DNA of 64,000 bases, from contig NZ_CP041216.1 in assembly GCF_020511155.1 (NCBI RefSeq), forward strand, positions 1,550,001 to 1,614,000. Reading direction: 5' to 3'. Below, in pieces: positions 4,120-16,388 of this stretch. Under the pieces are notes generated by a model, which saw only the letters and a program-made list of their open reading frames with translations, was not told the DNA's origin and did no database searches. The DNA comes from Shewanella glacialimarina. GTDB taxonomy: Bacteria > Pseudomonadota > Gammaproteobacteria > Enterobacterales > Shewanellaceae. The translations under genes and the position numbers were made by a program. Numbering within the stretch: the stretch's first letter is position 1; every line of letters begins with the position of its first letter.

Positions 4120-4137
4120 CTGGCACGCTAGTTGCGA
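4120..4137 (+). promoter_or_regulatory. Sigma-54 (RpoN) -24/-12 promoter of nasA
   Basis: TGGCACG-N4-TTGCGA places the invariant GG (4122-4123) 12 bp before GC (4134-4135), matching the RpoN consensus TGGCACG-N4-TTGCW. Transcription would start near 4147, about 30 bp before the nasA ATG. Confidence 0.8.
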
Positions 4138-4177
4138 TGTGAAATGTAATTATTGTAGCGAGAAGATAGGTGTTGGA

Positions 4178-7015
4178 ATGACGGATATTCAATCAAGTTG
4201 TGCATATTGTGGTGTCGGCTGTGGATTAACCATAAGACAACATCCAACAAAAACACTTGGTGAAACCGGCTTAGCGTTGACGTTACAAGGCGACAGAGCT
4301 CATCCCGCTAACTTTGGCCACTTGTGTGCTAAAGGTGAGCGTTTATTAGCAAGCCTAACTCAGCCCAATACGCTGCGCTACCCTAAATTGCGCTCAGGTA
4401 AACCACTTGAGTGGGATGTTGCAACGCAATTAATTGCAGATACCTTTCAGCAAACCATTGATCAATTTGGCCCTGATTCAGTGGCCTTGTATTTATCTGG
4501 TCAGTTGCTTACCGAAGACTACTATGTTGCCAACAAGTTTGCTAAAGGCTTCTTGAAAACCGCAAATATCGATACTAACTCACGCCTGTGTATGTCGTCA
4601 GCTGTGAGTGCAATGCAGCGAGCATTTGGTGAAGATGTGGTGCCTGGGTGTTATCAAGATTTTGAGCATGCACAAGTTATTGTATTAATTGGCGCGAATA
4701 CTGCCTGGACCCATCCTGTTTTATTCCAACGTATTTTAGCGGCCAAAAAAGTCAATGGCTATAAATTGGTAGTTATCGACCCGTTATCAACCGCAACGGC
4801 TAAGCAAGCTGATTTACATTTAGCGATAAACCCAGGGGCAGATTTAGAGTTATTTGTTGGCTTGCTGGGCTTTATTGCAGATAACAGCACACTGAATCAA
4901 AGCTATATTAATGCTCACACAGAAGGTGTTGTTGAAGCCATTACCCACGCACAACAGTTCAGTGCAAATCTGCAAACACTTGCCGACTCTGTTGGGGTGA
5001 CGTATTCGGACTTAGTACAGTTTTACCAACTTTTTAGTCAGCATGAGCAAGTGGTTACGGCCACCTGCCAAGGTGTTAATCAGTCAGTGAATGGCACTGA
5101 TATCACTAATGCGATTATTAATTGTCATCTTGCGCTAGGTCAAATAGGCCAGGTTGGAGCAGGATTCTTTTCGCTGACCGGACAGCCTAATGCAATGGGT
5201 GGCCGAGAAGTAGGCGGTTTGGCTACTCAATTAGCCTGTCATATGGGATTTGCTGATAATGAGCGGGCGTTACTGGCAGACTTTTGGCAATGCGGAACAG
5301 TGGCTAAACAAAAAGGCTTAGCGGCTGTTGATATGTTTGATGCGTTAGCCGATGGTAAGATAAAAGCCATATGGATTATGGGCACTAATCCTGTGGTATC
5401 GCTACCTAATAGCGCCAAAATTGCCAAAGCACTAGCCGATTGTCCGTTTGTGGTGGTGTCTGAAGTGAGTCCTGATTCTGACACCGCTAAGCTAGCGGAT
5501 ATATTGTTACCCGCGCAAGGATGGTCCGAAAAGTGTGGCACAGTAACCAATAGTGAACGCACTATTACACGCCAGCGTGGTTTTATTACCGCCAAAGGTC
5601 AGGCAAAACCTGATTGGTGGGCGGTGAGCCAAGTGGCGATTAAAATGGGCTTTAACGGCTTTGATTTCGAACATAATGCCAGTGTATTTAGCGAATTTGC
5701 ATTACTCAGTGCCAAAGTGAAACAAGCTTTTCCAGATAAACACTTTAATCTTGGCGGACTCGCTGGATTAACGAAAACTCAATATGATGATTTAGTGCCA
5801 ACACAGTGGCCAGTTGCAACCATTGAGCAAATAGGCCAACAACATCAACGTGTTTTTTCCAATGGCCAGTTTGCAACTGTCAGCGGTAAAGCACAGTTTA
5901 TGACGCCTGCGAACGTATCAGCTCACTTAGCCAAAGGTCAATCAGTAACTGGTGTTGCAAATAGTCGCCCAAACTTACCCGCTTTGTTGCTCAATAGTGG
6001 CCGCAGTCGAGATCAGTGGCACACCATGACCCGTACAGGCCATATTGCTAGCCTACGCGCCAGCGTGCCAGAACCTGTGATCCATTTACATCCCAAACAA
6101 CTGGGTTTATTTAATCTAGTGGAAGGTGGGTTAGCCCGTATTCAAGCTGAACAAAAAACAAAATCAACCTCCCAATATTTTACAATGGCTCGTGTGGTCG
6201 CAGATAAAGACATGCCAGTCGATGTTGCGTCTATGTCTATGCACTGGTCAAAGCAGTTTTCACTGACCCAAGGGATTAATCAAGTCATTGATAGCCGAGT
6301 TGATCCCATTTCACTTCAGCCAGGATTTAAATGCCAAGCTGTCACTTTATCGCCGGTTATATTAGCTCTGCAAGGGGTGGTATTTGGAGATCATGATAAA
6401 GCGGCTATCGGTCTTTGCTGGCAAGTGGCTCAAACGTTAACCAATGGTATTTGTCATCATATTGGGTTTGAAAACCAACAAGATGGTTTTGCATATCAAG
6501 CCACACCCTATTCATTAAAGTGGACCTTAACGCGAGTTAGTCAATCTGGGCATCAGTTGTTGCACATTCAATGCAATGTGCATAAGGGGCAATTGATTGC
6601 GTTGAAAATATTATCGCGCAGCCCCGTTAATGTGGCATTAGAACCTATAGGCGCATTTATTGGTAAAACCTTAAATAGCCAGCTATTAGGCCAACTTCAT
6701 CAACAGATTAAAGCAGGTAATAGTCCATTAATTTGTGCCTGTACTGGGGTAAGCGCTGCCAGTATTGGTGATCAAATCAATCAACAATTTAGCCAACAAG
6801 TGTTTAAACAAGGTGTAAAAAATATCAGCTTTGAACAGGCTTTAGATGCGACGCAATCCACATTAGGCTGTGGCCGACAATGTGGCAGTTGCCATAGTGA
6901 AGTTAAACAGTGCGCCGCAGCGCATTGGGCTGAGGCGCTTACCTATACTGATTCTAGTGATGAGTCAGATACCGAGCATCAACAAACCAATCCAGCAAAA
7001 GAGGATGTTGCCTAA
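4178..7015 (+). CDS. nasA: Assimilatory nitrate reductase, catalytic subunit
   Basis: The product is 945 aa. It begins with a [4Fe-4S] Cys set (C8, C11, C15, C50), followed by the molybdopterin oxidoreductase body (for example the IMGTNPVVSLPN segment) and the C-terminal molybdopterin-dinucleotide-binding domain. The end carries a BFD-like [2Fe-2S] domain (ICACTG, then GCGRQCGSC), typical of NasA-type cytoplasmic enzymes that reduce nitrate to nitrite for assimilation. The ATG at 4178 was chosen because the in-frame upstream GTG lies at the sigma-54 -12 element. The stop overlaps cobA by one base (TAATG). Confidence 0.95.
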   Translation: MTDIQSSCAYCGVGCGLTIRQHPTKTLGETGLALTLQGDRAHPANFGHLCAKGERLLASLTQPNTLRYPKLRSGKPLEWDVATQLIADTFQQTIDQFGPDSVALYLSGQLLTEDYYVANKFAKGFLKTANIDTNSRLCMSSAVSAMQRAFGEDVVPGCYQDFEHAQVIVLIGANTAWTHPVLFQRILAAKKVNGYKLVVIDPLSTATAKQADLHLAINPGADLELFVGLLGFIADNSTLNQSYINAHTEGVVEAITHAQQFSANLQTLADSVGVTYSDLVQFYQLFSQHEQVVTATCQGVNQSVNGTDITNAIINCHLALGQIGQVGAGFFSLTGQPNAMGGREVGGLATQLACHMGFADNERALLADFWQCGTVAKQKGLAAVDMFDALADGKIKAIWIMGTNPVVSLPNSAKIAKALADCPFVVVSEVSPDSDTAKLADILLPAQGWSEKCGTVTNSERTITRQRGFITAKGQAKPDWWAVSQVAIKMGFNGFDFEHNASVFSEFALLSAKVKQAFPDKHFNLGGLAGLTKTQYDDLVPTQWPVATIEQIGQQHQRVFSNGQFATVSGKAQFMTPANVSAHLAKGQSVTGVANSRPNLPALLLNSGRSRDQWHTMTRTGHIASLRASVPEPVIHLHPKQLGLFNLVEGGLARIQAEQKTKSTSQYFTMARVVADKDMPVDVASMSMHWSKQFSLTQGINQVIDSRVDPISLQPGFKCQAVTLSPVILALQGVVFGDHDKAAIGLCWQVAQTLTNGICHHIGFENQQDGFAYQATPYSLKWTLTRVSQSGHQLLHIQCNVHKGQLIALKILSRSPVNVALEPIGAFIGKTLNSQLLGQLHQQIKAGNSPLICACTGVSAASIGDQINQQFSQQVFKQGVKNISFEQALDATQSTLGCGRQCGSCHSEVKQCAAAHWAEALTYTDSSDESDTEHQQTNPAKEDVA

Positions 7016-7893
7016 TGAATAATGTCGAAGCCATGATTAAAAATACCCATCAGACACTTAGTGCAGAACAAACTCTCAAAGGTGGAGACGTGGCTATTGT
7101 TGGCGCAGGATGTGGTCAATTAGACTTGATGACCATTAAAGCCGCACGCATTGTGGCACAAGCAGAGGCATTAGTGTTCGACAGTTTGGTCAGTAGCGAT
7201 ATTTTGACCTTAGTGAATGCCCAGTGCCAACGTCATTTTGTCGGTAAACGTTGCGGCCAGCCGAGTACTCAGCAGGATGATATTAATGCGTTATTGCTTA
7301 AATTAGCTCAGCAAGGGTTAAAAGTAGTCCGTTTAAAAGGTGGCGACCCACATATATTTGGCCGCGGCGCTGAGGAAGCACTTTATCTCGCTAATCATGG
7401 AGTGCGCTCGCAGTTTTTTGCCGGGGTTACCGCTGCTTTGGGCAGTGCTGCCAGCACAGGTATTCCACTGACATTTCGAGGTGTCGCCCGCAGTGTCACT
7501 TTAATTACTGGCACTAAAATGACTGATGCTGATAATGCCAATGCGCCAACACAATGGCAGGCGTTACTTGTGGCGCAATCTACCCTAGTGTTTTATATGG
7601 GAAAAGAGCAGGCAGCTAGTATTTCACATGGGTTAATAAACGCCATGTGCGCGGCAAATCTGCCTGTTGCTTTTGTCACTAATGGCGGTCGCCCCAATCA
7701 ATTAGTCACTTATTCAACCGTGGGTAATATGGGACACGATGCATTAAGCATTAAAGATTCAGGGCCAACGCTAATTATTATCGGTGAAGTGGTCAGTGTC
7801 GGGTTGCAGTTGTCGCAGTTACTTGCAGACATTGGCGATAACACCCAGCATTCATTCCCCCAAAGCGAATCATTTGAGGTGTTATATGCCTAA
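7015..7893 (+). CDS. cobA: Uroporphyrinogen-III C-methyltransferase (SUMT)
   Basis: The 292-aa product has the SAM-methyltransferase motifs of SUMT: VGAGCGQLDLMTIKA near residue 30, VVRLKGGDPHIFGRGAEE near 105, and GVTAALGSAASTGIPLT near 137. It converts uroporphyrinogen III to precorrin-2, the first step toward siroheme, the cofactor of the NirB nitrite reductase encoded downstream. This explains its place in the nas operon. It overlaps nasA by 1 nt and ybiB by 8 nt, implying translational coupling. Confidence 0.93.
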   Translation: MNNVEAMIKNTHQTLSAEQTLKGGDVAIVGAGCGQLDLMTIKAARIVAQAEALVFDSLVSSDILTLVNAQCQRHFVGKRCGQPSTQQDDINALLLKLAQQGLKVVRLKGGDPHIFGRGAEEALYLANHGVRSQFFAGVTAALGSAASTGIPLTFRGVARSVTLITGTKMTDADNANAPTQWQALLVAQSTLVFYMGKEQAASISHGLINAMCAANLPVAFVTNGGRPNQLVTYSTVGNMGHDALSIKDSGPTLIIIGEVVSVGLQLSQLLADIGDNTQHSFPQSESFEVLYA

Positions 7894-9103
7894 AATTGGA
7901 CAGCTTGAACTCACCTCTGTTGAAGACTTTGACTTTCGATTATTGATCAAAGCGCTTGGCAAGGGCGAAAAAGGCTCACGCAGTTTAACGTTTGCCGAAG
8001 CTAGTTTGTTAATTCAAGGTTTTGCCAAAGGCAAAGTGACTAAAGCCCAAATGGCCAGTGCAATGATGCTAATGCGGGTGCGAGGCGAAACCGTGGCAGA
8101 GGTAGCAGGTGTTGTTGCTGGGCTTAAACACACTATTAATCCTGCTTGGGGGGAATTAAACGTTGATATTGATTGGCCAGTTTATGCCGGAAAACGTGAG
8201 CAGTTACCTTGGCTACTGCTGGTGGCAAAGTTGTTAGCCCGCAAAGGTATGCGGATTATGTTACACGGTGATAGTCAGGCCTTGCCCCATCGTCGTCATG
8301 TTGAGTCTTGTATTCAAGCATTAGATATTGCGCTGTGTCAAACGGCAGAAAAAGCACAACAAGCATTGGATGATAGCGGCATAGTATATGTCCCTGCAGG
8401 TGATTTAGCCCCTGTGTTAGATGATTGCCGTTTGTTGCATCAAGAACTTGGCTTAAGAAGCATTATTCAAACCGCATCTCGCTGCATGAACCCTAGTAAT
8501 GCGCCATTGAGCCTACGCAGTTTTTTTCATCCTGGGCTTGATGAATTGCATCAAAAAGTGGCAGAGAAATTATTTACTGAAGATGTCTACCAACAAGGTG
8601 TTGTCGGTATTTTTAAAGGCTTACAAGGCGAGACGGAAATAAATCCCCGTGTCACAACTGATGTTCAAGTCGTGAAATACTCTGGTGAGAATGTCCAGTT
8701 TAGTGCATTTGAGCTACCAACATTGTTGGAGGGCTTTTCTGGTGCAAAAGTGGGCCAGGCAGAACTGGCTATTGAAATACTTGCGCAGCTTTGGCGCACA
8801 GAATGGCACAATCAAGCAAATAATACTCTGTCCGTTGAGTTAACTGAACTCACCGCCACTATGCCTTGCTCCATGATTAAGCAGGCATTAAGCAGTGTTG
8901 AAGCGACATTATGTTTTGTGCTGAGTTTACTGGACGTTTTACAGTCTAACAGTATTGTTATACCTGAAAAATTGGCCTTAGCTCAGCAATGGTGGGCAGG
9001 TCGATTGGATTCCAATACCTTCCCTGAGCCGAATTCCCTTACCTTGTTTGAATCATTGAATACGTCATCAACATGCGCGAAGGATAAATTATGCACAGTA
9101 TAA
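7886..9103 (+). CDS. ybiB: YbiB-like protein (TrpD2 / glycosyl transferase family 3 fold)
   Basis: The product is 405 aa and resembles anthranilate phosphoribosyltransferase-fold proteins of the YbiB/TrpD2 type: an N-terminal helical domain with GKGEKGSRSLTFAEA and a GT3-like body. YbiB is known as a nucleic-acid-binding TrpD2 protein, not a tryptophan enzyme. The start at 7886 (MPKIGQLEL) gives an 8-nt overlap with cobA; the frame opens further upstream inside cobA without an obvious ribosome site. Its role in nitrate assimilation is unknown. It overlaps nasT by 13 nt. Confidence 0.75.
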   Translation: MPKIGQLELTSVEDFDFRLLIKALGKGEKGSRSLTFAEASLLIQGFAKGKVTKAQMASAMMLMRVRGETVAEVAGVVAGLKHTINPAWGELNVDIDWPVYAGKREQLPWLLLVAKLLARKGMRIMLHGDSQALPHRRHVESCIQALDIALCQTAEKAQQALDDSGIVYVPAGDLAPVLDDCRLLHQELGLRSIIQTASRCMNPSNAPLSLRSFFHPGLDELHQKVAEKLFTEDVYQQGVVGIFKGLQGETEINPRVTTDVQVVKYSGENVQFSAFELPTLLEGFSGAKVGQAELAIEILAQLWRTEWHNQANNTLSVELTELTATMPCSMIKQALSSVEATLCFVLSLLDVLQSNSIVIPEKLALAQQWWAGRLDSNTFPEPNSLTLFESLNTSSTCAKDKLCTV

Positions 9104-9783
9104 TTTTATGTGATTCAACATTTTCACAATTAGACGATGCTGCAAAGCGTTTAGCTGACTATCAAGCCATTTTATTATTAATGGGTAAAGTCAGGGTTAT
9201 GAACTCTATCAGTGAGGTTGAGGCCATGTCTCACTCTTACCCTGTTGATGTGATGTTAGTGCTAACCGATAAACTCGGCCTGCACACAGAGGGGTTTATT
9301 CAGCGAAATCTGCTGACTCAATCAACAGCGATTATCGTTAATGCTAATCAATGGCAACAGCAACAGTTAGCGGCTCTATTAACCTGTGGTCGTCTTACTT
9401 TTGTCCCCGATGTGTTGGTTGCCAGTCGCCTAGTCAGCTTAGTCAATCTGGCTAGAATACGTTTTGATGCCGCTAATAAGAGTATTGCAGAATTTAAAAA
9501 ACTCGATGATGAAGTGAAAGGGCTAAAGCTACTGAGCCAAGCCAAACTTATTGTGATGCAACAAGGGTTTGATGAAGCAAAAGCACACAAGATTATTCAG
9601 CAACAAGCAATGCAAAAGGGCGTCAGCGTGGCTCAAATGTCAGCACAAATTATTGCGGTGATGACATCCGATCAGGCTGCAAAAAATGCAGGAATATCGG
9701 TTATGCCAGAAAACAGTGCGCCTCATTATGGTGCGGGTGCGCTTAATATGAAGGTGACAATAACAAACGTTAGCAATGTGTAG
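9091..9783 (+). CDS. nasT: NasT-like ANTAR-domain RNA-binding antiterminator
   Basis: The product is 230 aa. The N-terminal ~125 residues look like a degenerate receiver (VDVMLVLTDK where a phospho-accepting Asp would be expected, and no clear conserved Lys). A helical linker leads to an ANTAR domain at about 137-191 (EVKGLKLLSQAKLIVMQQGF). NasT proteins bind paired hexaloop hairpins in nas leaders and prevent termination when nitrate or nitrite is present. A matching leader lies just downstream, before nirB. AAGGA precedes the ATG. No NasS sensor gene is adjacent. Confidence 0.82.
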   Translation: MHSIILCDSTFSQLDDAAKRLADYQAILLLMGKVRVMNSISEVEAMSHSYPVDVMLVLTDKLGLHTEGFIQRNLLTQSTAIIVNANQWQQQQLAALLTCGRLTFVPDVLVASRLVSLVNLARIRFDAANKSIAEFKKLDDEVKGLKLLSQAKLIVMQQGFDEAKAHKIIQQQAMQKGVSVAQMSAQIIAVMTSDQAAKNAGISVMPENSAPHYGAGALNMKVTITNVSNV

Positions 9784-9836: not shown

Positions 9837-9853
9837 TTGGCATGTAGTATGCA
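9837..9853 (+). promoter_or_regulatory. Sigma-54 -24/-12 promoter of nirB
   Basis: TTGGCATGTAGTATGCA has GG at 9839-9840 and GC at 9851-9852, the same 12-bp spacing as the nasA promoter. Transcription would start near 9865, just before the ANTAR-type hairpins. A weak NtrC-like dyad (GCGCC-N7-GGTGC) lies near 9718-9736, inside the end of nasT. Confidence 0.65.
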
Positions 9854-9873
9854 GTACCAGTAAAGATTTATAT

Positions 9874-9905
9874 TAAAAATCGGGTTTTATTAAGGCAAAG
9901 GCGCC
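9874..9905 (+). promoter_or_regulatory. ANTAR target: paired hexaloop hairpins P1 and P2 in the nirB leader
   Basis: P1 is a 5-bp stem TAAAA/TTTTA closing hexaloop ATCGGG (9874-9889). P2 is a 3-bp stem GGC/GCC closing hexaloop AAAGGC (9894-9905). Both loops have A at position 1 and G at position 4, as in described ANTAR substrates, and are only 4 nt apart. P2 uses the same bases as the 5' arm of the terminator beginning at 9899, so P2 and the terminator exclude each other. The P2 stem is short, which tempers confidence. Confidence 0.72.
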
Positions 9906-9938
9906 AACTTCTTAACTGAAGTTGGTGCCTTTTTTTTT
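9899..9938 (+). terminator. Attenuator (intrinsic terminator) in the nirB leader
   Basis: A 13-bp stem with one G-U pair (AGGCGCCAACTTC / GAAGTTGGTGCCT) closes a 6-nt loop and runs into nine T residues, 29 bases before the nirB start codon. By default it should stop transcription. It overlaps P2 of the ANTAR target, so a NasT-like protein holding P2 would allow read-through. Confidence 0.9.
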
Positions 9939-9966
9939 AATAAACCAAGGCATGAAGGAGCCACAT

Positions 9967-12585
9967 ATGGCAGTCACAAAATCTAAGTTAGTTGTCGTGG
10001 GTAATGGCATGGTTGGCCATCATTTTATTGAACAATTGTGCAGCCTGGGGCTGAACAAACAATTTGACGTGCATGTCTTTGGTGAAGAGCCTCGCCCGGC
10101 ATATGACCGGGTGCAATTATCCAAGTATTTTGAAACCGGCACAGCCGACTCTCTTATGCTAACCAGTGCGCAAGATTATGCTGATTGGGGGATTAATTTA
10201 CACCTTAATACCCAAATTACCGCTATTGATATTGCCACTAAAACACTCACCAGCGCGAAAGGTGTTCAATATCAATATGACCGTTTAGTGCTGTCGACTG
10301 GCTCGTTTCCATTCGTGCCACCGATTAAAGGTAACGACCGTGAACACTGTCTGGTGTATCGCACCATTGAAGATCTACAAGATATTCAAGCTGCGGCAAA
10401 TAATAGTAAAGTTGGCGTAGTTGTCGGTGGCGGTTTATTGGGGCTTGAAGCGGCTAATGCCATGATGCAGTTAGGAGTAAAAACCCATGTGGTTGAGTTT
10501 GCACCACAATTGATGCCGGTTCAGCTTAACGACAAAGCCGGCGATTTGTTATGCAGCAAAATTGAGCAACTCGGGGTGAGTGTTCATACCTCTAAAGCGA
10601 CTACGGCAATTATTGATGGTGAAACCGCGTTGCATCGGATGACATTCAGTGATGAGTCATATTTAGAAGCGGATATGATCGTGTTTTCTGCCGGTATTCG
10701 TCCACAGGATGCATTGGCTAGAGTGTCCAACATTAACATTGGTGAGCGTGGCGGCATTGAAATTGACGATTACTGCTTAACCTCGGCGCCTGATGTTTAT
10801 GCTATTGGTGAGTGCGCTTTATGGCAACAAAAAATATTTGGCTTAGTCGCGCCGGGGTATCAAATGGCCCGTGTTGCGGCATCTCATATCGCCGCATCGG
10901 TATCTATTTTAGAACCTAAAAATAAAGCTGCTAGCTTTACCGGCGCCGATATGAGCACCAAACTAAAATTGCTGGGTGTAGATGTTGCCGCAATTGGCGC
11001 TAGTCGTGGTTTTGATAATGCACAGTTTGTCGAGCTATCTGATAATCAAGCGGGTATTTACAAAAAACTCTGGTTAGATGAAACCGGCAAATTTTTAAAG
11101 GGCGCCGTGCTGGTGGGCGATAATAGCGACTACAGCCGTTTATTAGAGGCTTATTTATCGCAGGATGAAATTATCGGCTCAGCGGTTGAGTTGTTATTAG
11201 CGGGCGCAGAATCTGAAGCAGATTTAAAAGACACTTCAATAGTGTGTTCATGCCATCAGGTGACCAAAGGCGATATTGTCGATGCAGTGAAAGCCGGCAA
11301 TCATAAAATGGCTGAAATCAAATCATGTACTCGCGCCGCATCGGGTTGTGGTGGCTGTGCACCTATGGTGCAAAAAATTATTGACCAAACATTACAAGCG
11401 CAAGGGCTAGATTTTAATGCCGGAATTTGTGCTCATTTTGATCATGACCGTCAAGCCTTGTATCACCTTTGTCAGGTAGAAGGCATTAATGATTTTGAGA
11501 CATTAATGACCTTGCATGGCAAACCTTCACCCCAAGGTCACACCTATGGATGTGATATTTGTAAGCCGGCAGCAGCATCCATTTTTGCCAGTTTACAAAA
11601 TCAATATGTACTAAACCAAGACAATAGCCATGTGCAATTACAAGACACTAATGATGCTTTTCTTGGCAACCTGCAAAAAAATGGCACTTACTCTATTGTG
11701 CCGCGCATTGCCGGAGGAGAAATTACCCCTGCCAAACTTATCGCTATGGGGCAAATCGCTCAAGATTATGACTTATATACCAAGATAACCGGCGGCCAAC
11801 GTATCGATATGTTCGGTGCGCAGTTGTCACAATTACCCGAAATTTGGCAAAAACTGATTGATGCAGGTTTTGAAACCGGTCATGCGTACGGCAAATCTTT
11901 GCGCACGGTTAAATCTTGCGTTGGCAACACATGGTGTCGTTACGGCGTGCAAGACGCGATTGGCTTAGCGATTGATTTAGAAAATCGCTACAAAGGCTTA
12001 CGCAGTCCTCATAAATTAAAATTTGCGGTATCAGGTTGTACCCGTGAATGTGCTGAAGCACAAAGTAAAGACATTGGTGTAATAGCAACTGACAAGGGTT
12101 GGAATTTATATGTTGCCGGTAATGGCGGTATGCGCCCGCGACATGGTGATTTATTTGCAACCGATTTAAGCACTGCAGAGCTATACCAATATATCGATCG
12201 AGTGTTGATGTTCTACGTTAAAACCGCCGATAAATTACAACGTACTTCAACGTGGATGGACTCGTTAGAAGGTGGTTTAGGCTACTTAAAGTCGGTGGTT
12301 ATTGATGATGCACTCGGTCTTAATACTGAGCTTGAAAAACAAATGGACAGCATTGTCGCCTCTTACCAATGTGAGTGGAAAACCAGTCTTGAACAGCCAT
12401 CATTCCTGAGCCGCTTCAATGAGTTTGTTAACCCGGCAGATGCCCCTAAAGCGGACACTTCAGCCTATCAACGCATACGTGAACAGCGTTTTCCAGCCAT
12501 TAAAGATGCAGGGGCAGGCACTATCGCTATTCGCGACATTACTGACGAACAAATAAACAATACTGTTGAGGAGGTTGTAGCATGA
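9967..12585 (+). CDS. nirB: Assimilatory nitrite reductase [NAD(P)H], large subunit
   Basis: The 872-aa product has an N-terminal FAD/NAD-dependent reductase (VVVGNGMVGHHF, later VVVGGGLLGLEAANAM), a BFD-like [2Fe-2S] segment (VCSCHQVTKGDIV with CGGC), and a C-terminal sulfite/nitrite reductase domain with the siroheme/[4Fe-4S] cysteines (CVGNTWCRYG and SGCTRECAEA). It reduces nitrite to ammonium in the cytoplasm. The start at 9967 follows AAGGAG with 6-nt spacing; an in-frame upstream start would lie inside the terminator hairpin. It overlaps nirD by 4 nt (ATGA). Confidence 0.95.
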   Translation: MAVTKSKLVVVGNGMVGHHFIEQLCSLGLNKQFDVHVFGEEPRPAYDRVQLSKYFETGTADSLMLTSAQDYADWGINLHLNTQITAIDIATKTLTSAKGVQYQYDRLVLSTGSFPFVPPIKGNDREHCLVYRTIEDLQDIQAAANNSKVGVVVGGGLLGLEAANAMMQLGVKTHVVEFAPQLMPVQLNDKAGDLLCSKIEQLGVSVHTSKATTAIIDGETALHRMTFSDESYLEADMIVFSAGIRPQDALARVSNINIGERGGIEIDDYCLTSAPDVYAIGECALWQQKIFGLVAPGYQMARVAASHIAASVSILEPKNKAASFTGADMSTKLKLLGVDVAAIGASRGFDNAQFVELSDNQAGIYKKLWLDETGKFLKGAVLVGDNSDYSRLLEAYLSQDEIIGSAVELLLAGAESEADLKDTSIVCSCHQVTKGDIVDAVKAGNHKMAEIKSCTRAASGCGGCAPMVQKIIDQTLQAQGLDFNAGICAHFDHDRQALYHLCQVEGINDFETLMTLHGKPSPQGHTYGCDICKPAAASIFASLQNQYVLNQDNSHVQLQDTNDAFLGNLQKNGTYSIVPRIAGGEITPAKLIAMGQIAQDYDLYTKITGGQRIDMFGAQLSQLPEIWQKLIDAGFETGHAYGKSLRTVKSCVGNTWCRYGVQDAIGLAIDLENRYKGLRSPHKLKFAVSGCTRECAEAQSKDIGVIATDKGWNLYVAGNGGMRPRHGDLFATDLSTAELYQYIDRVLMFYVKTADKLQRTSTWMDSLEGGLGYLKSVVIDDALGLNTELEKQMDSIVASYQCEWKTSLEQPSFLSRFNEFVNPADAPKADTSAYQRIREQRFPAIKDAGAGTIAIRDITDEQINNTVEEVVA

Positions 12586-14498: not shown

Positions 14499-16388
14499 AT
14501 GATCAAACAAAGCGCTGAACAAACAAAGCAGCAGGCGTTAGTGTCGCCATTAGAAGTATTGGCAACATTAGAAACATCAGCAACATCAGCAACATCAGCA
14601 ACAGCAAGCAATCAAGTGGCAGATAACACTGTGTTGATGTGTTCCGATACCGAGCAACTTCATATCCATGTAGGTCAAGCGTCAGACAAAGGGATTAAAG
14701 CGGCTAATGAAGATGCAATTGGCATTCGTATTCCCTCGGGATTAATGCTGACCACTAAAGGTATTGTCACGGTTATTAGTGATGGCGTAAGCACCGCAGA
14801 AGGCGGCGCACAGGCATCAGCCATCAGTGTCAGTAATTTTATTAGCGATTATTATTCCACACCTGACACCTGGAGTGTGCAAACCTCAAGTAATAAAGTG
14901 CTAACAGCATTAAACCGTTGGTTATATGGGTTAGGGCAAGATTATCGAGATGCTCGCCGAGGTTTTGTTTGCACTTTTTCTGCACTGGTTTTTAAATCGT
15001 GTACCGCCCATATGCTGCATGTCGGAGATTCTCGAGTGTATCGATTGCGAGCCGGTGAGCTAGTTAAACTTAGTCGCGATCACAGCACCAGCGTCAGTGA
15101 TACACAGCATTATTTGACTCGAGCACTAGGGATGGACGTTAAGTTAGAGGTCGACTATAAAGCCATTTCGTTACAGGTTGGGGATGTGTTTTTACTGACC
15201 ACAGACGGCATTCATGATGTACTCACTGACTATGAAATTAGCCAATACCTAAATAAACATATTAGCCTGCACCCGCAATTATTAGATGAACAATGTGAGC
15301 AGTTTTGTCTCCAGTTAATGGCAAAAGCACTCAGTGCTGGAAGCAAAGATAATGTCAGTGCGCAGCTGTTGTACATCGACCGTTTGCCCAATCAAGAAAT
15401 CGATGACGTTTATCAACGGCTGGCCAGCAAACCTTTTCCACCGCCAATGGATATAGGGATGAAACTTGATGGATATCAAGTGACCCATATTATCCATCAG
15501 TCGCAACGCAGCCAGGTTTATCGGGTAATAAATAGCGAGGGTAAAGCTTTTTGCATGAAAACCCCTTCGGTTAATTACCTTGATGATGCCGCCTATATTG
15601 AGCGATTCATGTTAGAAAGCTGGGTGGGTAATCGCATCAATAATAACTATGTGGTTAAAATAGCCGAACAAAATAGACCCAAATCCGCACTGTACTATTT
15701 AACCGAATTTTTAGATGGTGTGAGTTTGTCACAGTGGTTAGTACAGCATAGAAAAGCCTCAGTAGAAGAGGTACTGCGGCTGGTTAAGCAGATGGAACTC
15801 GGCATCAGAGCTTTTCATCGACGTGAGACATTACACCAAGATTTAAAGCCAGATAATATCTTTATTACCCGCCAGAGTGGGGTAAAAATAATTGATTTTG
15901 GCTCATGCTTTATTAAAGGTATTGCTGAAATTAGCACGCCATTAGTGCGCGATAATATCTTGGGTACTGCAGATTACACAGCACCAGAAGTGATATTGGG
16001 TTATCAATCAGATGGCCGAGCAGACTTGTTTTCGTTAGCGGTAATCACCTTTGAAATGCTTGCCGGTGAATTGCCGTTTAAAGGTCAGCTATGCAAATGT
16101 CACAAGCGAAATGATTTTTTAAAACTAACTTATGTCAGTGTACATAAATTGAATCCTATGGTGCCAGAATGGATGGATTCGGTCCTCAAAAAAGCCATGA
16201 GTATTGAACCCAGCTTTAGACAAGCCGATACCTGTGAATTTATCCATCAACTACATACCCCTCAAATACATAAAATTACCAAAGCTAGGGTACCTTTTAT
16301 CGAAAAAGATCCACTTAAGTTCTGGCAAATAGTATCAATTATGCTGTTTCTGTCATTACTTGCGTCTTTGTTTAGCAAATTTTTATAG
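14499..16388 (+). CDS. PP2C phosphatase - Ser/Thr protein kinase fusion, tail-anchored
   Basis: The product is 629 aa. Residues ~50-290 form a PP2C-type phosphatase (NEDA, ISDGVSTAEGG, HVGDSRVYRLR, LLTTDGIHDVL and SKDNVSAQ all present). Residues ~310-585 form a Hanks-type kinase with a Lys near 352 (CMKTP), catalytic loop HQDLKPDN near 446, IIDFGS near 465 and TAPEV. The usual Gly-rich loop is replaced by HQSQRSQVY. A C-terminal hydrophobic helix (~606-626) suggests a membrane tail anchor. Related kinases sit in nas clusters of other gammaproteobacteria, for example next to nirBD in Pseudomonas. The N-terminus has a three-copy TSA-type repeat (14574-14600). Its target is unknown. Confidence 0.85.
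   Translation: MIKQSAEQTKQQALVSPLEVLATLETSATSATSATASNQVADNTVLMCSDTEQLHIHVGQASDKGIKAANEDAIGIRIPSGLMLTTKGIVTVISDGVSTAEGGAQASAISVSNFISDYYSTPDTWSVQTSSNKVLTALNRWLYGLGQDYRDARRGFVCTFSALVFKSCTAHMLHVGDSRVYRLRAGELVKLSRDHSTSVSDTQHYLTRALGMDVKLEVDYKAISLQVGDVFLLTTDGIHDVLTDYEISQYLNKHISLHPQLLDEQCEQFCLQLMAKALSAGSKDNVSAQLLYIDRLPNQEIDDVYQRLASKPFPPPMDIGMKLDGYQVTHIIHQSQRSQVYRVINSEGKAFCMKTPSVNYLDDAAYIERFMLESWVGNRINNNYVVKIAEQNRPKSALYYLTEFLDGVSLSQWLVQHRKASVEEVLRLVKQMELGIRAFHRRETLHQDLKPDNIFITRQSGVKIIDFGSCFIKGIAEISTPLVRDNILGTADYTAPEVILGYQSDGRADLFSLAVITFEMLAGELPFKGQLCKCHKRNDFLKLTYVSVHKLNPMVPEWMDSVLKKAMSIEPSFRQADTCEFIHQLHTPQIHKITKARVPFIEKDPLKFWQIVSIMLFLSLLASLFSKFL
14574..14600 (+). repeat. In-frame 9-bp tandem repeat, 3 copies
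   Basis: ACATCAGCA is repeated exactly three times in the N-terminal tail of the PP2C-kinase gene, giving a TSATSATSA-like stretch. Copy-number change would not shift the frame. Confidence 0.85.

What the first reader, a model, noticed from the sequence alone, without database searches (positions are those of the whole stretch)
9837..9966. ANTAR-type attenuation leader before nirB, driven by a sigma-54 promoter
Between a -24/-12 element and the nirB ribosome site lie two small hexaloop hairpins, both with A1 and G4 in the loop, followed by a 13-bp terminator with nine T. The second hairpin shares bases with the terminator. A nasT-like ANTAR gene is immediately upstream. This would place nitrogen limitation (RpoN/NtrC) at initiation and nitrate sensing (ANTAR) at elongation in one 130-bp control region.
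Basis: partly seen in the sequence, partly recalled or inferred. Interest (0 to 1): 0.8.

Follow-up and report, generated by a model that had tools for sequence, protein, structure and literature searches.

The report
Single-hairpin ANTAR switch before nirB
Just before its nitrite-reductase genes this Shewanella-group bacterium carries an RNA stop signal whose first half doubles as one small hairpin; both occur in all 63 genomes of the genus checked that have the neighbouring ANTAR gene and are missing in the one that lost that gene, so the ANTAR protein likely holds the hairpin open to let the nitrite-use genes be read.

Summary
The observation mostly holds. A -24/-12 promoter (9838-9853) is followed by hexaloop hairpin P2 (9894-9905), which shares bases with a strong terminator (9897-9932 plus T-run), between an ANTAR gene (9091-9783) and nirB. 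P2 with terminator stands before nirB in 63 of 63 Shewanella genomes with this ANTAR gene; ten P2 positions are invariant in 61 of 61 aligned leaders, while the terminator covaries mainly beyond P2. G057 has the same operon and promoter but has lost both ANTAR gene and P2/terminator.

Not supported: the first hairpin. A P1 of this kind arises in 4.8% of shuffles, is not kept in the genus, and its G4 is G in 9 of 61. So this is a one-hexaloop ANTAR attenuator, not the canonical tandem pair. The Shewanella ANTARs also lack arginines R340 and R366 (NasR numbers), needed for RNA binding in NasR and kept in the 30 best-scoring ANTARs of other families.

NtrC plus ANTAR dual control is known from Klebsiella. 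New are the one-hairpin target with a diverged ANTAR, and TrpD2-ANTAR fusions in six genomes. Binding, signal and sensor are untested.

The parts
4121..4136 (+). -24/-12 (sigma-54-type) promoter of the nasA-cobA-trpD2-ANTAR operon, without attenuator
   Evidence: TGGCACGCTAGTTGCG; such a site in 43 of 46 genus loci whose nasA upstream could be read, no P2-like match behind it in those 43
7886..9103 (+). TrpD2/YbiB-like gene, candidate partner of the ANTAR protein
   Evidence: PDB best match YbiB 1.8e-17; Pfam PF02885; NCBIfam NF006564 254.9 bits, cut-off 257
9091..9783 (+). ANTAR gene, 230 aa: receiver-like domain, long helix, ANTAR domain (residues 138-188)
   Evidence: PF03861 36.9 bits; model pLDDT 88.8; AmiR and EutV the best full-length structure matches
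9719..9735 (+). NtrC-like palindrome inside the ANTAR 3' coding end (weak)
   Evidence: CGCCTCATTATGGTGCG, 8 of 12 half-site letters against shuffle mean 7.3, 119 bases before the -24 element
9838..9853 (+). -24/-12 (sigma-54-type) promoter of nirB
   Evidence: TGGCATGTAGTATGCA; in 57 of 63 genus leaders
9874..9889 (+).
   Evidence: 33.2% of cells paired, shuffles 34.7%; 4.8% of shuffles
9876..9884 (+). conserved linear element A[AC]AATYNGR, function unknown
   Evidence: column counts in 61 leaders; kept in G057 without ANTAR or terminator
9894..9905 (+). P2 hexaloop hairpin GGC-AAAGGC-GCC, likely ANTAR target
   Evidence: ten invariant positions in 61 of 61; all three pairs kept in all rows, no variation
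9897..9939 (+). intrinsic terminator: 15-pair stem 9897-9932 and T-run
   Evidence: covariation; P2 with terminator in 63 of 63 leaders
9967..12585 (+). nirB, first gene behind the attenuator
   Evidence: TIGR02374 985 bits
12582..16388 (+). nirD, narK-type transporter, PP2C/protein-kinase gene, likely read with nirB
   Evidence: Pfam; order kept in most genus loci

Best explanation
The nirB leader is likely a transcription attenuator in which the neighbouring ANTAR protein would bind the single P2 hexaloop and so keep the overlapping terminator from forming. Transcription would start at the sigma-54-type promoter (9838-9853), probably activated by NtrC under nitrogen limitation (inferred from promoter type and NtrC-like sites of relatives). 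Without signal the P2 bases pair into the terminator and RNA polymerase stops before nirB (terminator shown by sequence and covariation; termination itself untested). With signal, the receiver-like ANTAR protein, probably as a dimer, holds P2 (inferred), and nirBD, narK and the kinase gene are read. The ANTAR gene lies upstream of the terminator in the nasA operon, which has its own promoter and no attenuator, so it can be made before the switch opens. The signal is presumably nitrate or nitrite (inferred from gene content). The sensor is unknown; the adjacent TrpD2-like protein, fused to ANTAR in six relatives, is the leading candidate partner.
For: P2 with terminator before nirB in 63 of 63 genomes with this ANTAR gene and, with loop AACGAA, in G076 with a NasR-type ANTAR. 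P2 positions invariant in 61 of 61, including GGC and A upstream of the terminator's G-C stem. Terminator covaries (6 pairs with changes on both sides; 90.4% of cells paired against 41-57% slid); in the part shared with P2's G4 and 3' stem the 5' side never changes. G057: same operon and promoter, ANTAR gene gone, P2/terminator gone. Eleven other genomes with nirB but no ANTAR hit have no leader, only 18-55 bases before nirB. P2 fits the SELEX consensus for NasR: C:G closing pair, A1, G4 (PMC7496416, passages). Predicted fold as AmiR/EutV.
Against: No binding or termination data. Antitermination in EutV needs both hexaloops (PMC3369931, PMC8934654, passages), and here P1 fails. The Shewanella ANTAR lacks R340 and R366 (0 and 1 of 57), whose alanine mutants lose RNA binding in NasR, and has His for W362 (PMC7496416, passages). 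The clean joint loss is a single event (G057); the eleven others have a different, 56-59% identical nirB. P2 is invariant, so its stem has no covariation of its own. The -24/-12 match alone is at chance level in the window, and six of 63 leaders lack it.
Confidence: 0.78

Rival explanations
1. It is an ANTAR attenuator, but the TrpD2-like protein is an ordinary nitrate-assimilation gene with no part in sensing; the fusions came from neighbouring genes by chance, and the ANTAR is signalled otherwise or acts constitutively.
For: trpD2 follows nasA(-cobA) also where a NasT-NasS-type pair (L144, L145, L146) or NasR (L150) is present (NasS named by position and similarity to NrtA only).
Against: TrpD2 and ANTAR co-occur in 63 genomes of 129, each in 64, lie side by side, and are one open frame in six; five database clusters carry both Pfam domains.
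Confidence: 0.5
2. The terminator simply ends the upstream nasA-ANTAR operon, and P2 is a by-product of its GC-rich stem.
For: A terminator between two operons is ordinary; in six leaders no -24/-12 site stands between the ANTAR stop and the terminator.
Against: In 57 of 63 the nirB promoter lies before the terminator, so nirB's own transcript must pass it. GGC and A outside the terminator's G-C stem are invariant in 61 of 61. Terminator lost together with ANTAR in G057.
Confidence: 0.08
3. The leader is an attenuator worked by something else, such as a leader peptide, a small molecule or another RNA-binding protein.
For: The linear element A[AC]AATYNGR is conserved and survives in G057 without ANTAR; key ANTAR residues are lost.
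Against: No ATG between promoter and terminator in the window; no Rfam family fits; P2 has the known ANTAR signature and tracks the ANTAR gene.
Confidence: 0.1

Closest known systems
Klebsiella oxytoca NasR / nasF leader
   Same: Nitrate-assimilation operon, NtrC control plus ANTAR antitermination; P2 with C:G-closed A1/G4 hexaloop overlapping the terminator (PMC7496416, PMC5424462, PMC3369931, passages).
   Different: Tandem hexaloops there, one detectable here; NIT nitrate-sensor domain there, receiver-like domain here; R340, W362 and R366 replaced here.
NasS-NasT (Paracoccus, Azotobacter, Pseudomonas)
   Same: ANTAR protein with predicted receiver-like domain beside nitrate-assimilation genes.
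   Different: No NasS-like gene beside it; the only NMT1_2 hit in the own genome looks, by eye, like a lipoprotein next to a GGDEF gene; trpD2 is the neighbour instead.
EutV and its eut leaders (Enterococcus)
   Different: EutV is phosphorylated at Asp54 and needs both hexaloops (PMC8934654, passages); here no Asp is invariant and only one hexaloop is found.
AmiR-AmiC (1qo0)
   Same: Best PDB match by sequence (E 1.3e-4) and by Foldseek; a receiver-like domain controlled by a partner protein.
   Different: AmiC binds amides (PMC3369931, passage); the candidate partner here is TrpD2/YbiB-like.

Membership tests
Dual-hexaloop ANTAR target RNA | P2: hexaloop with A1 and G4, C:G closing pair, >=3 bp | tested here: met
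   63 of 63 leaders; invariant in 61 of 61
Dual-hexaloop ANTAR target RNA | P1: second A1/G4 hexaloop hairpin shortly upstream | tested here: not met
   C:G-closed with >=4 bp in 60 bases before P2: 0 of 63; >=3 bp: 1 of 63, shuffle mean 0.6; window P1 not kept. A distal one (63-133 bases) in 8 of 57, not in the window
Dual-hexaloop ANTAR target RNA | intrinsic terminator that excludes P2 | tested here: met
Dual-hexaloop ANTAR target RNA | ANTAR protein binds and prevents termination | not testable with these tools
   needs in vitro transcription and RNA binding
ANTAR protein family (PF03861) | ANTAR domain over the curated cut-off | tested here: met
   36.9 bits, cut-off 27.3; over the cut-off in 63 of 129 genus genomes
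ANTAR protein family (PF03861) | residues needed for RNA binding in NasR (R340, W362, R366) | tested here: not met
   window L, H, Q; R340 in 0 of 57, R366 in 1 of 57 unfused Shewanella ANTARs; both in 30 of 30 best-scoring other-family ANTARs
NasS-NasT system | NasS partner encoded beside NasT | tested here: not met
   trpD2, ANTAR, leader, nirB follow each other; own genome has one NMT1_2 hit, elsewhere
NasS-NasT system | nitrate or nitrite releases the ANTAR protein | not testable with these tools
   needs biochemistry
sigma-54 / NtrC-activated promoter | GG-N10-GC -24/-12 element | tested here: met
   9838-9853; 57 of 63 leaders
sigma-54 / NtrC-activated promoter | upstream NtrC enhancer site | tested here: inconclusive
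   window 8 of 12, shuffle mean 7.3; over 59 leaders mean best 8.98 against 7.24, best site 108-125 bases before -24 in 42 of 59 (consensus recalled)

The most novel reading that the evidence does not exclude
Shewanella uses a one-hexaloop class of ANTAR antitermination: the leader has shed the P1 hairpin, the ANTAR domain has traded two RNA-binding arginines and the G4-stacking aromatic for other residues and His while keeping the Met plug and one Lys, and a TrpD2/YbiB-like protein, fused to ANTAR in six species, has replaced NasS as the nitrate-responsive partner.
Probability: 0.3. Interest if true: 0.75.

Novelty: new variant of a known kind. Interest (0 to 1): 0.57.

Why it matters
The EutV-RNA structure paper (PMC8934654, abstract and passages) redefines the minimal ANTAR target as one hexaloop, holds that antitermination needs contact with both, and leaves open how far single-hexaloop motifs are used. 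Here is a genus-wide natural leader with one detectable hexaloop in front of a terminator, paired with a diverged ANTAR domain, so that question becomes directly testable; G057 supplies a natural loss experiment. The TrpD2-ANTAR fusions give a lead on what the TrpD2 genes of nitrate-assimilation operons may do.

Tried and rejected
Rfam at E <= 1 gave three low-scoring unrelated matches. The four other GGCAWWGGCGCC sites of the own genome show no terminator behind them on reading, so no further target was found with that exact pattern. A leader-peptide attenuator was set aside: no ATG lies between promoter and terminator here (read).

TrpD2 as a dedicated ANTAR sensor was weakened when trpD2 turned up behind nasA also in operons with a NasT-NasS-type pair or NasR. 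That P1 loss is peculiar to Shewanella was dropped: among 24 non-Shewanella leaders that I hand-picked from the scan, 12 have no C:G-closed A1/G4 hexaloop (>=3 bp) within 150 bases of P2, one (L124) is doubtful and 11 have one; the f25 ones among the 12 keep R340 and R366, so P1 loss does not track the residue change everywhere. In G057 the AATTTGAAC element survives without ANTAR and terminator, so it may not be an ANTAR site.

The paper search ANTAR + Shewanella was swamped by 'Antarctic' and says nothing. No paper held both ANTAR and TrpD2 or ANTAR and YbiB; 'single hexaloop' + ANTAR gave one, PMC8934654; Shewanella + nitrate assimilation + RpoN + NtrC gave one, on Bosea by its title. The VIA list for the ANTAR model covers mostly residues 1-129. 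The fusion model is less sure (pLDDT 75.2), matches TrpD and YbiB structures, and was not used for the mechanism.

Dropped rows and unused results: L044 (G076, NasR type) left out of the 63 leaders; L099 and L100 left out of alignment A1 (61 of 63), since a longer hairpin put the T-run out of the range; A2 held 41 of 57 unfused ANTARs. The promoter columns used a faulty spacing pattern, and the loose P2 pattern a faulty loop length; one search repeated that check properly. One search chose other-family ANTARs by a motif that demanded R366; one search replaced it without that bias, but its 30 are the best-scoring of the order search. Promoter hits of L045 and L102 were discarded by hand as lying in coding sequence; they are still among the 59. 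Shuffles keep single-base content only.

Full report
WHERE IT IS. The window is C1:1550001-1614000 of a 4.46-Mb single-contig genome. Thirteen relatives with this ANTAR gene are Shewanella by record title; several share contig lengths with the genus genomes searched. On the + strand lie nasA (ORF 4139-7015, likely start 4178), a cobA-like gene (7015-7893), a TrpD2/YbiB-like gene (7886-9103), an ANTAR gene (9091-9783), the leader, nirB (9967-12585), nirD, a narK-type transporter and a PP2C/protein-kinase gene. The ANTAR gene is the only PF03861 match in the genome.

WHAT THE SEQUENCE SHOWS. The -24/-12 element at 9838-9853 has GG-N10-GC spacing. P2, GGC-AAAGGC-GCC at 9894-9905, has A1 and G4 in a hexaloop and a C:G closing pair, the features that SELEX found for NasR (PMC7496416, passages). 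Its loop end and 3' stem are the start of a 15-pair terminator followed by a T-run; 0.1 such terminators are expected in shuffles, and the 130-base stretch folds 5.4 sd below shuffles.

THE GENUS TEST. PF03861 is found in 64 of 129 Shewanella-genus genomes. One of these, G076, has a NasR-type NIT-ANTAR protein. I fetched 63 loci besides the own one; with the own locus and without G076 there are 63 leaders. All 63 carry GGCA[AT][AT]GGCG before nirB, each followed by a terminator hairpin with a T-rich tail (63 of 63). In 61 aligned leaders ten P2 positions are invariant. The terminator pairs in 90.4% of cells (41-57% when slid; 84.4% when shuffled) and has 6 pairs with changes on both sides. Five lie beyond P2; the sixth is P2's variable third loop position, unpaired in 30 of 60. 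From loop G4 to the end of P2 the 5' side never changes. That is the pattern expected if the 5' arm has a second duty, P2. The first GGC and the A after it lie outside the terminator's G-C stem, yet never vary.

P1 FAILS. Its pairs hold in 33.2% of cells (shuffled 34.7%); sliding the partner by one to three columns towards the 3' end does better. A C:G-closed A1/G4 hexaloop with >=4 bp in the 60 bases before P2 occurs in 0 of 63 leaders; with >=3 bp in 1 (shuffle mean 0.6). A hairpin like the window's, any closing pair and >=5 bp, arises in 4.8% of shuffles of its own 60 bases. What is conserved there is a linear element A[AC]AATYNGR. From promoter to P2, 8 of 57 leaders have a second canonical hexaloop AATGGC 63-133 bases before P2 (shuffle mean 1.2, maximum 6); the window does not. 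So 49 of 57 have a single detectable hexaloop.

A NATURAL LOSS. nirB (E <= 1e-100) is found in 76 of 129 genomes; 12 of them have no ANTAR hit. G057 has the same operon order, but no ANTAR gene remains between trpD2 and nirB. Its leader keeps TTGGCATGGTCGCTGCA and AATTTGAAC, but has no P2 and no terminator between promoter and nirB. The other eleven have a more distant nirB (56-59% identity) that starts 18-55 bases behind another open frame, with no P2/terminator in the 400 bases before it. G076, with the NasR-type ANTAR, has GGC-AACGAA-GCC and a terminator. So P2 plus terminator stands before nirB in 64 of 64 genomes with an ANTAR hit and in 0 of 12 without; only G057 is a clean comparison, as the eleven are a different nirB lineage. 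The second nirB of G123 (55% identity) also has none.

INITIATION. A -24/-12 element lies between the ANTAR stop and P2 in 57 of 63; the exceptions are L045 and five of the six fusion genomes. An NtrC-like palindrome (consensus recalled) scores on average 8.98 of 12 against 7.24 in shuffles over 59 leaders, and its best place is 108-125 bases before the -24 element in 42 of 59; in the window it scores only 8. nasA has its own -24/-12 element (4121-4136), found in 43 of 46 loci whose upstream could be read, with no P2-like match behind it in those 43. So the ANTAR gene is probably made without attenuation, and the switch divides the nitrate-reductase half from the nitrite-reductase half.

THE PROTEIN. 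The 230-aa protein is predicted (pLDDT 88.8) as receiver-like domain, long helix and ANTAR; AmiR and EutV are its best full-length matches. No Asp is among the invariant or nearly invariant columns of 41 relatives, so control by phosphorylation is unlikely and a partner, as in AmiR-AmiC, is expected (inference). Mapped on NasR (numbers from PMC7496416; chain offset 27 worked out), R340 is R in 30 of 30 other-family ANTARs, the best-scoring ones of the order search, but in 0 of 57 unfused and 0 of 6 fused Shewanella ones; R366 is R in 30 of 30 against 1 of 57 unfused (6 of 6 fused); position 362 is His in 57 of 57; K347 and M370 are kept in 57 of 57, but K347 is Cys in the 6 fused. G076's NasR-type protein has Gln at 340 and 366 too. 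The paper reports loss of RNA binding for R340A, W362A, R366A and N373A (passages). By equal spacing these match EutV Arg142, Tyr164 and Arg168, which contact RNA, and M370 matches Met172, the plug (PMC8934654, passages). Either binding is weak or lost, or it is done differently; the invariance of P2 and the joint loss in G057 speak for a different but working mode.

THE PARTNER. TrpD2 (E <= 1e-20) is in 64 of 129 genomes, 63 of them shared with ANTAR. In six (L078, L098-L102) one open frame holds both; Pfam finds both domains in the three I submitted, one ANTAR match 0.3 bits below the cut-off. Five protein clusters in the large database carry PF02885 and PF03861 together. Outside Shewanella, by the coordinates, trpD2 lies next to an ANTAR gene in 7 of the 10 ANTAR-bearing g23 genomes and in two or three f6 genomes (neighbourhoods of some). 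But trpD2 also follows nasA where a NasT-NasS-type pair (L144-L146) or NasR (L150) is present, so it is first of all a nitrate-assimilation gene. YbiB, its closest solved relative, is a DNA-binding protein that binds ObgE (PMC10123104, listing). A sensor role is a lead, not a result.

WHAT IS KNOWN. The two-hexaloop rule comes from PMC3369931 (section 10 part 1 and passages). PMC8934654 (abstract and passages) says that a dimer must contact each hexaloop in turn and leaves single-hexaloop use open. The leader here fits that gap.

VERDICT. A real, conserved ANTAR-type attenuator behind a sigma-54-type promoter: a new variant of a known kind, because it has one detectable hexaloop, a diverged ANTAR domain, and a TrpD2 neighbour or fusion where other systems have NasS. 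Binding, signal and partner are untested.

Noticed in passing
window 9719-9735: The NtrC-like site lies inside the ANTAR coding end, where several relatives encode a conserved GAPHxGA tail; the DNA site may shape the peptide.
   Followed up: partly
L078:5951-7129, L101:5948-7120, L102:5948-7126 and L098-L100: Natural TrpD2-ANTAR fusion proteins of about 390-420 aa with a shortened ANTAR domain; five of these six genomes also lack the -24/-12 site before nirB.
   Followed up: partly
L128, L133 and L135, upstream of an NrtA-like gene: Three ANTAR-type hexaloop hairpins in a row before one terminator.
   Followed up: no
L047, L053, L067, L069, L070, L072, L077, L082: A second AATGGC hexaloop hairpin 63-133 bases before P2 in eight Shewanella leaders, possibly a distant P1.
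   Followed up: partly
P0007 (494 aa): A protein with PF00126 (HTH_1), PF02885 and PF00591: a TrpD2-like protein joined to a DNA-binding domain.
   Followed up: no
window 14499-16388: A fused PP2C phosphatase and protein kinase closes the nirBD-narK operon and is kept in most genus loci; role unknown.
   Followed up: no
L107 (own genome, C1:3929192-3929845): A lipoprotein-like NMT1_2 protein next to a GGDEF-type gene (by eye), possibly a nutrient sensor for cyclic-di-GMP signalling.
   Followed up: no
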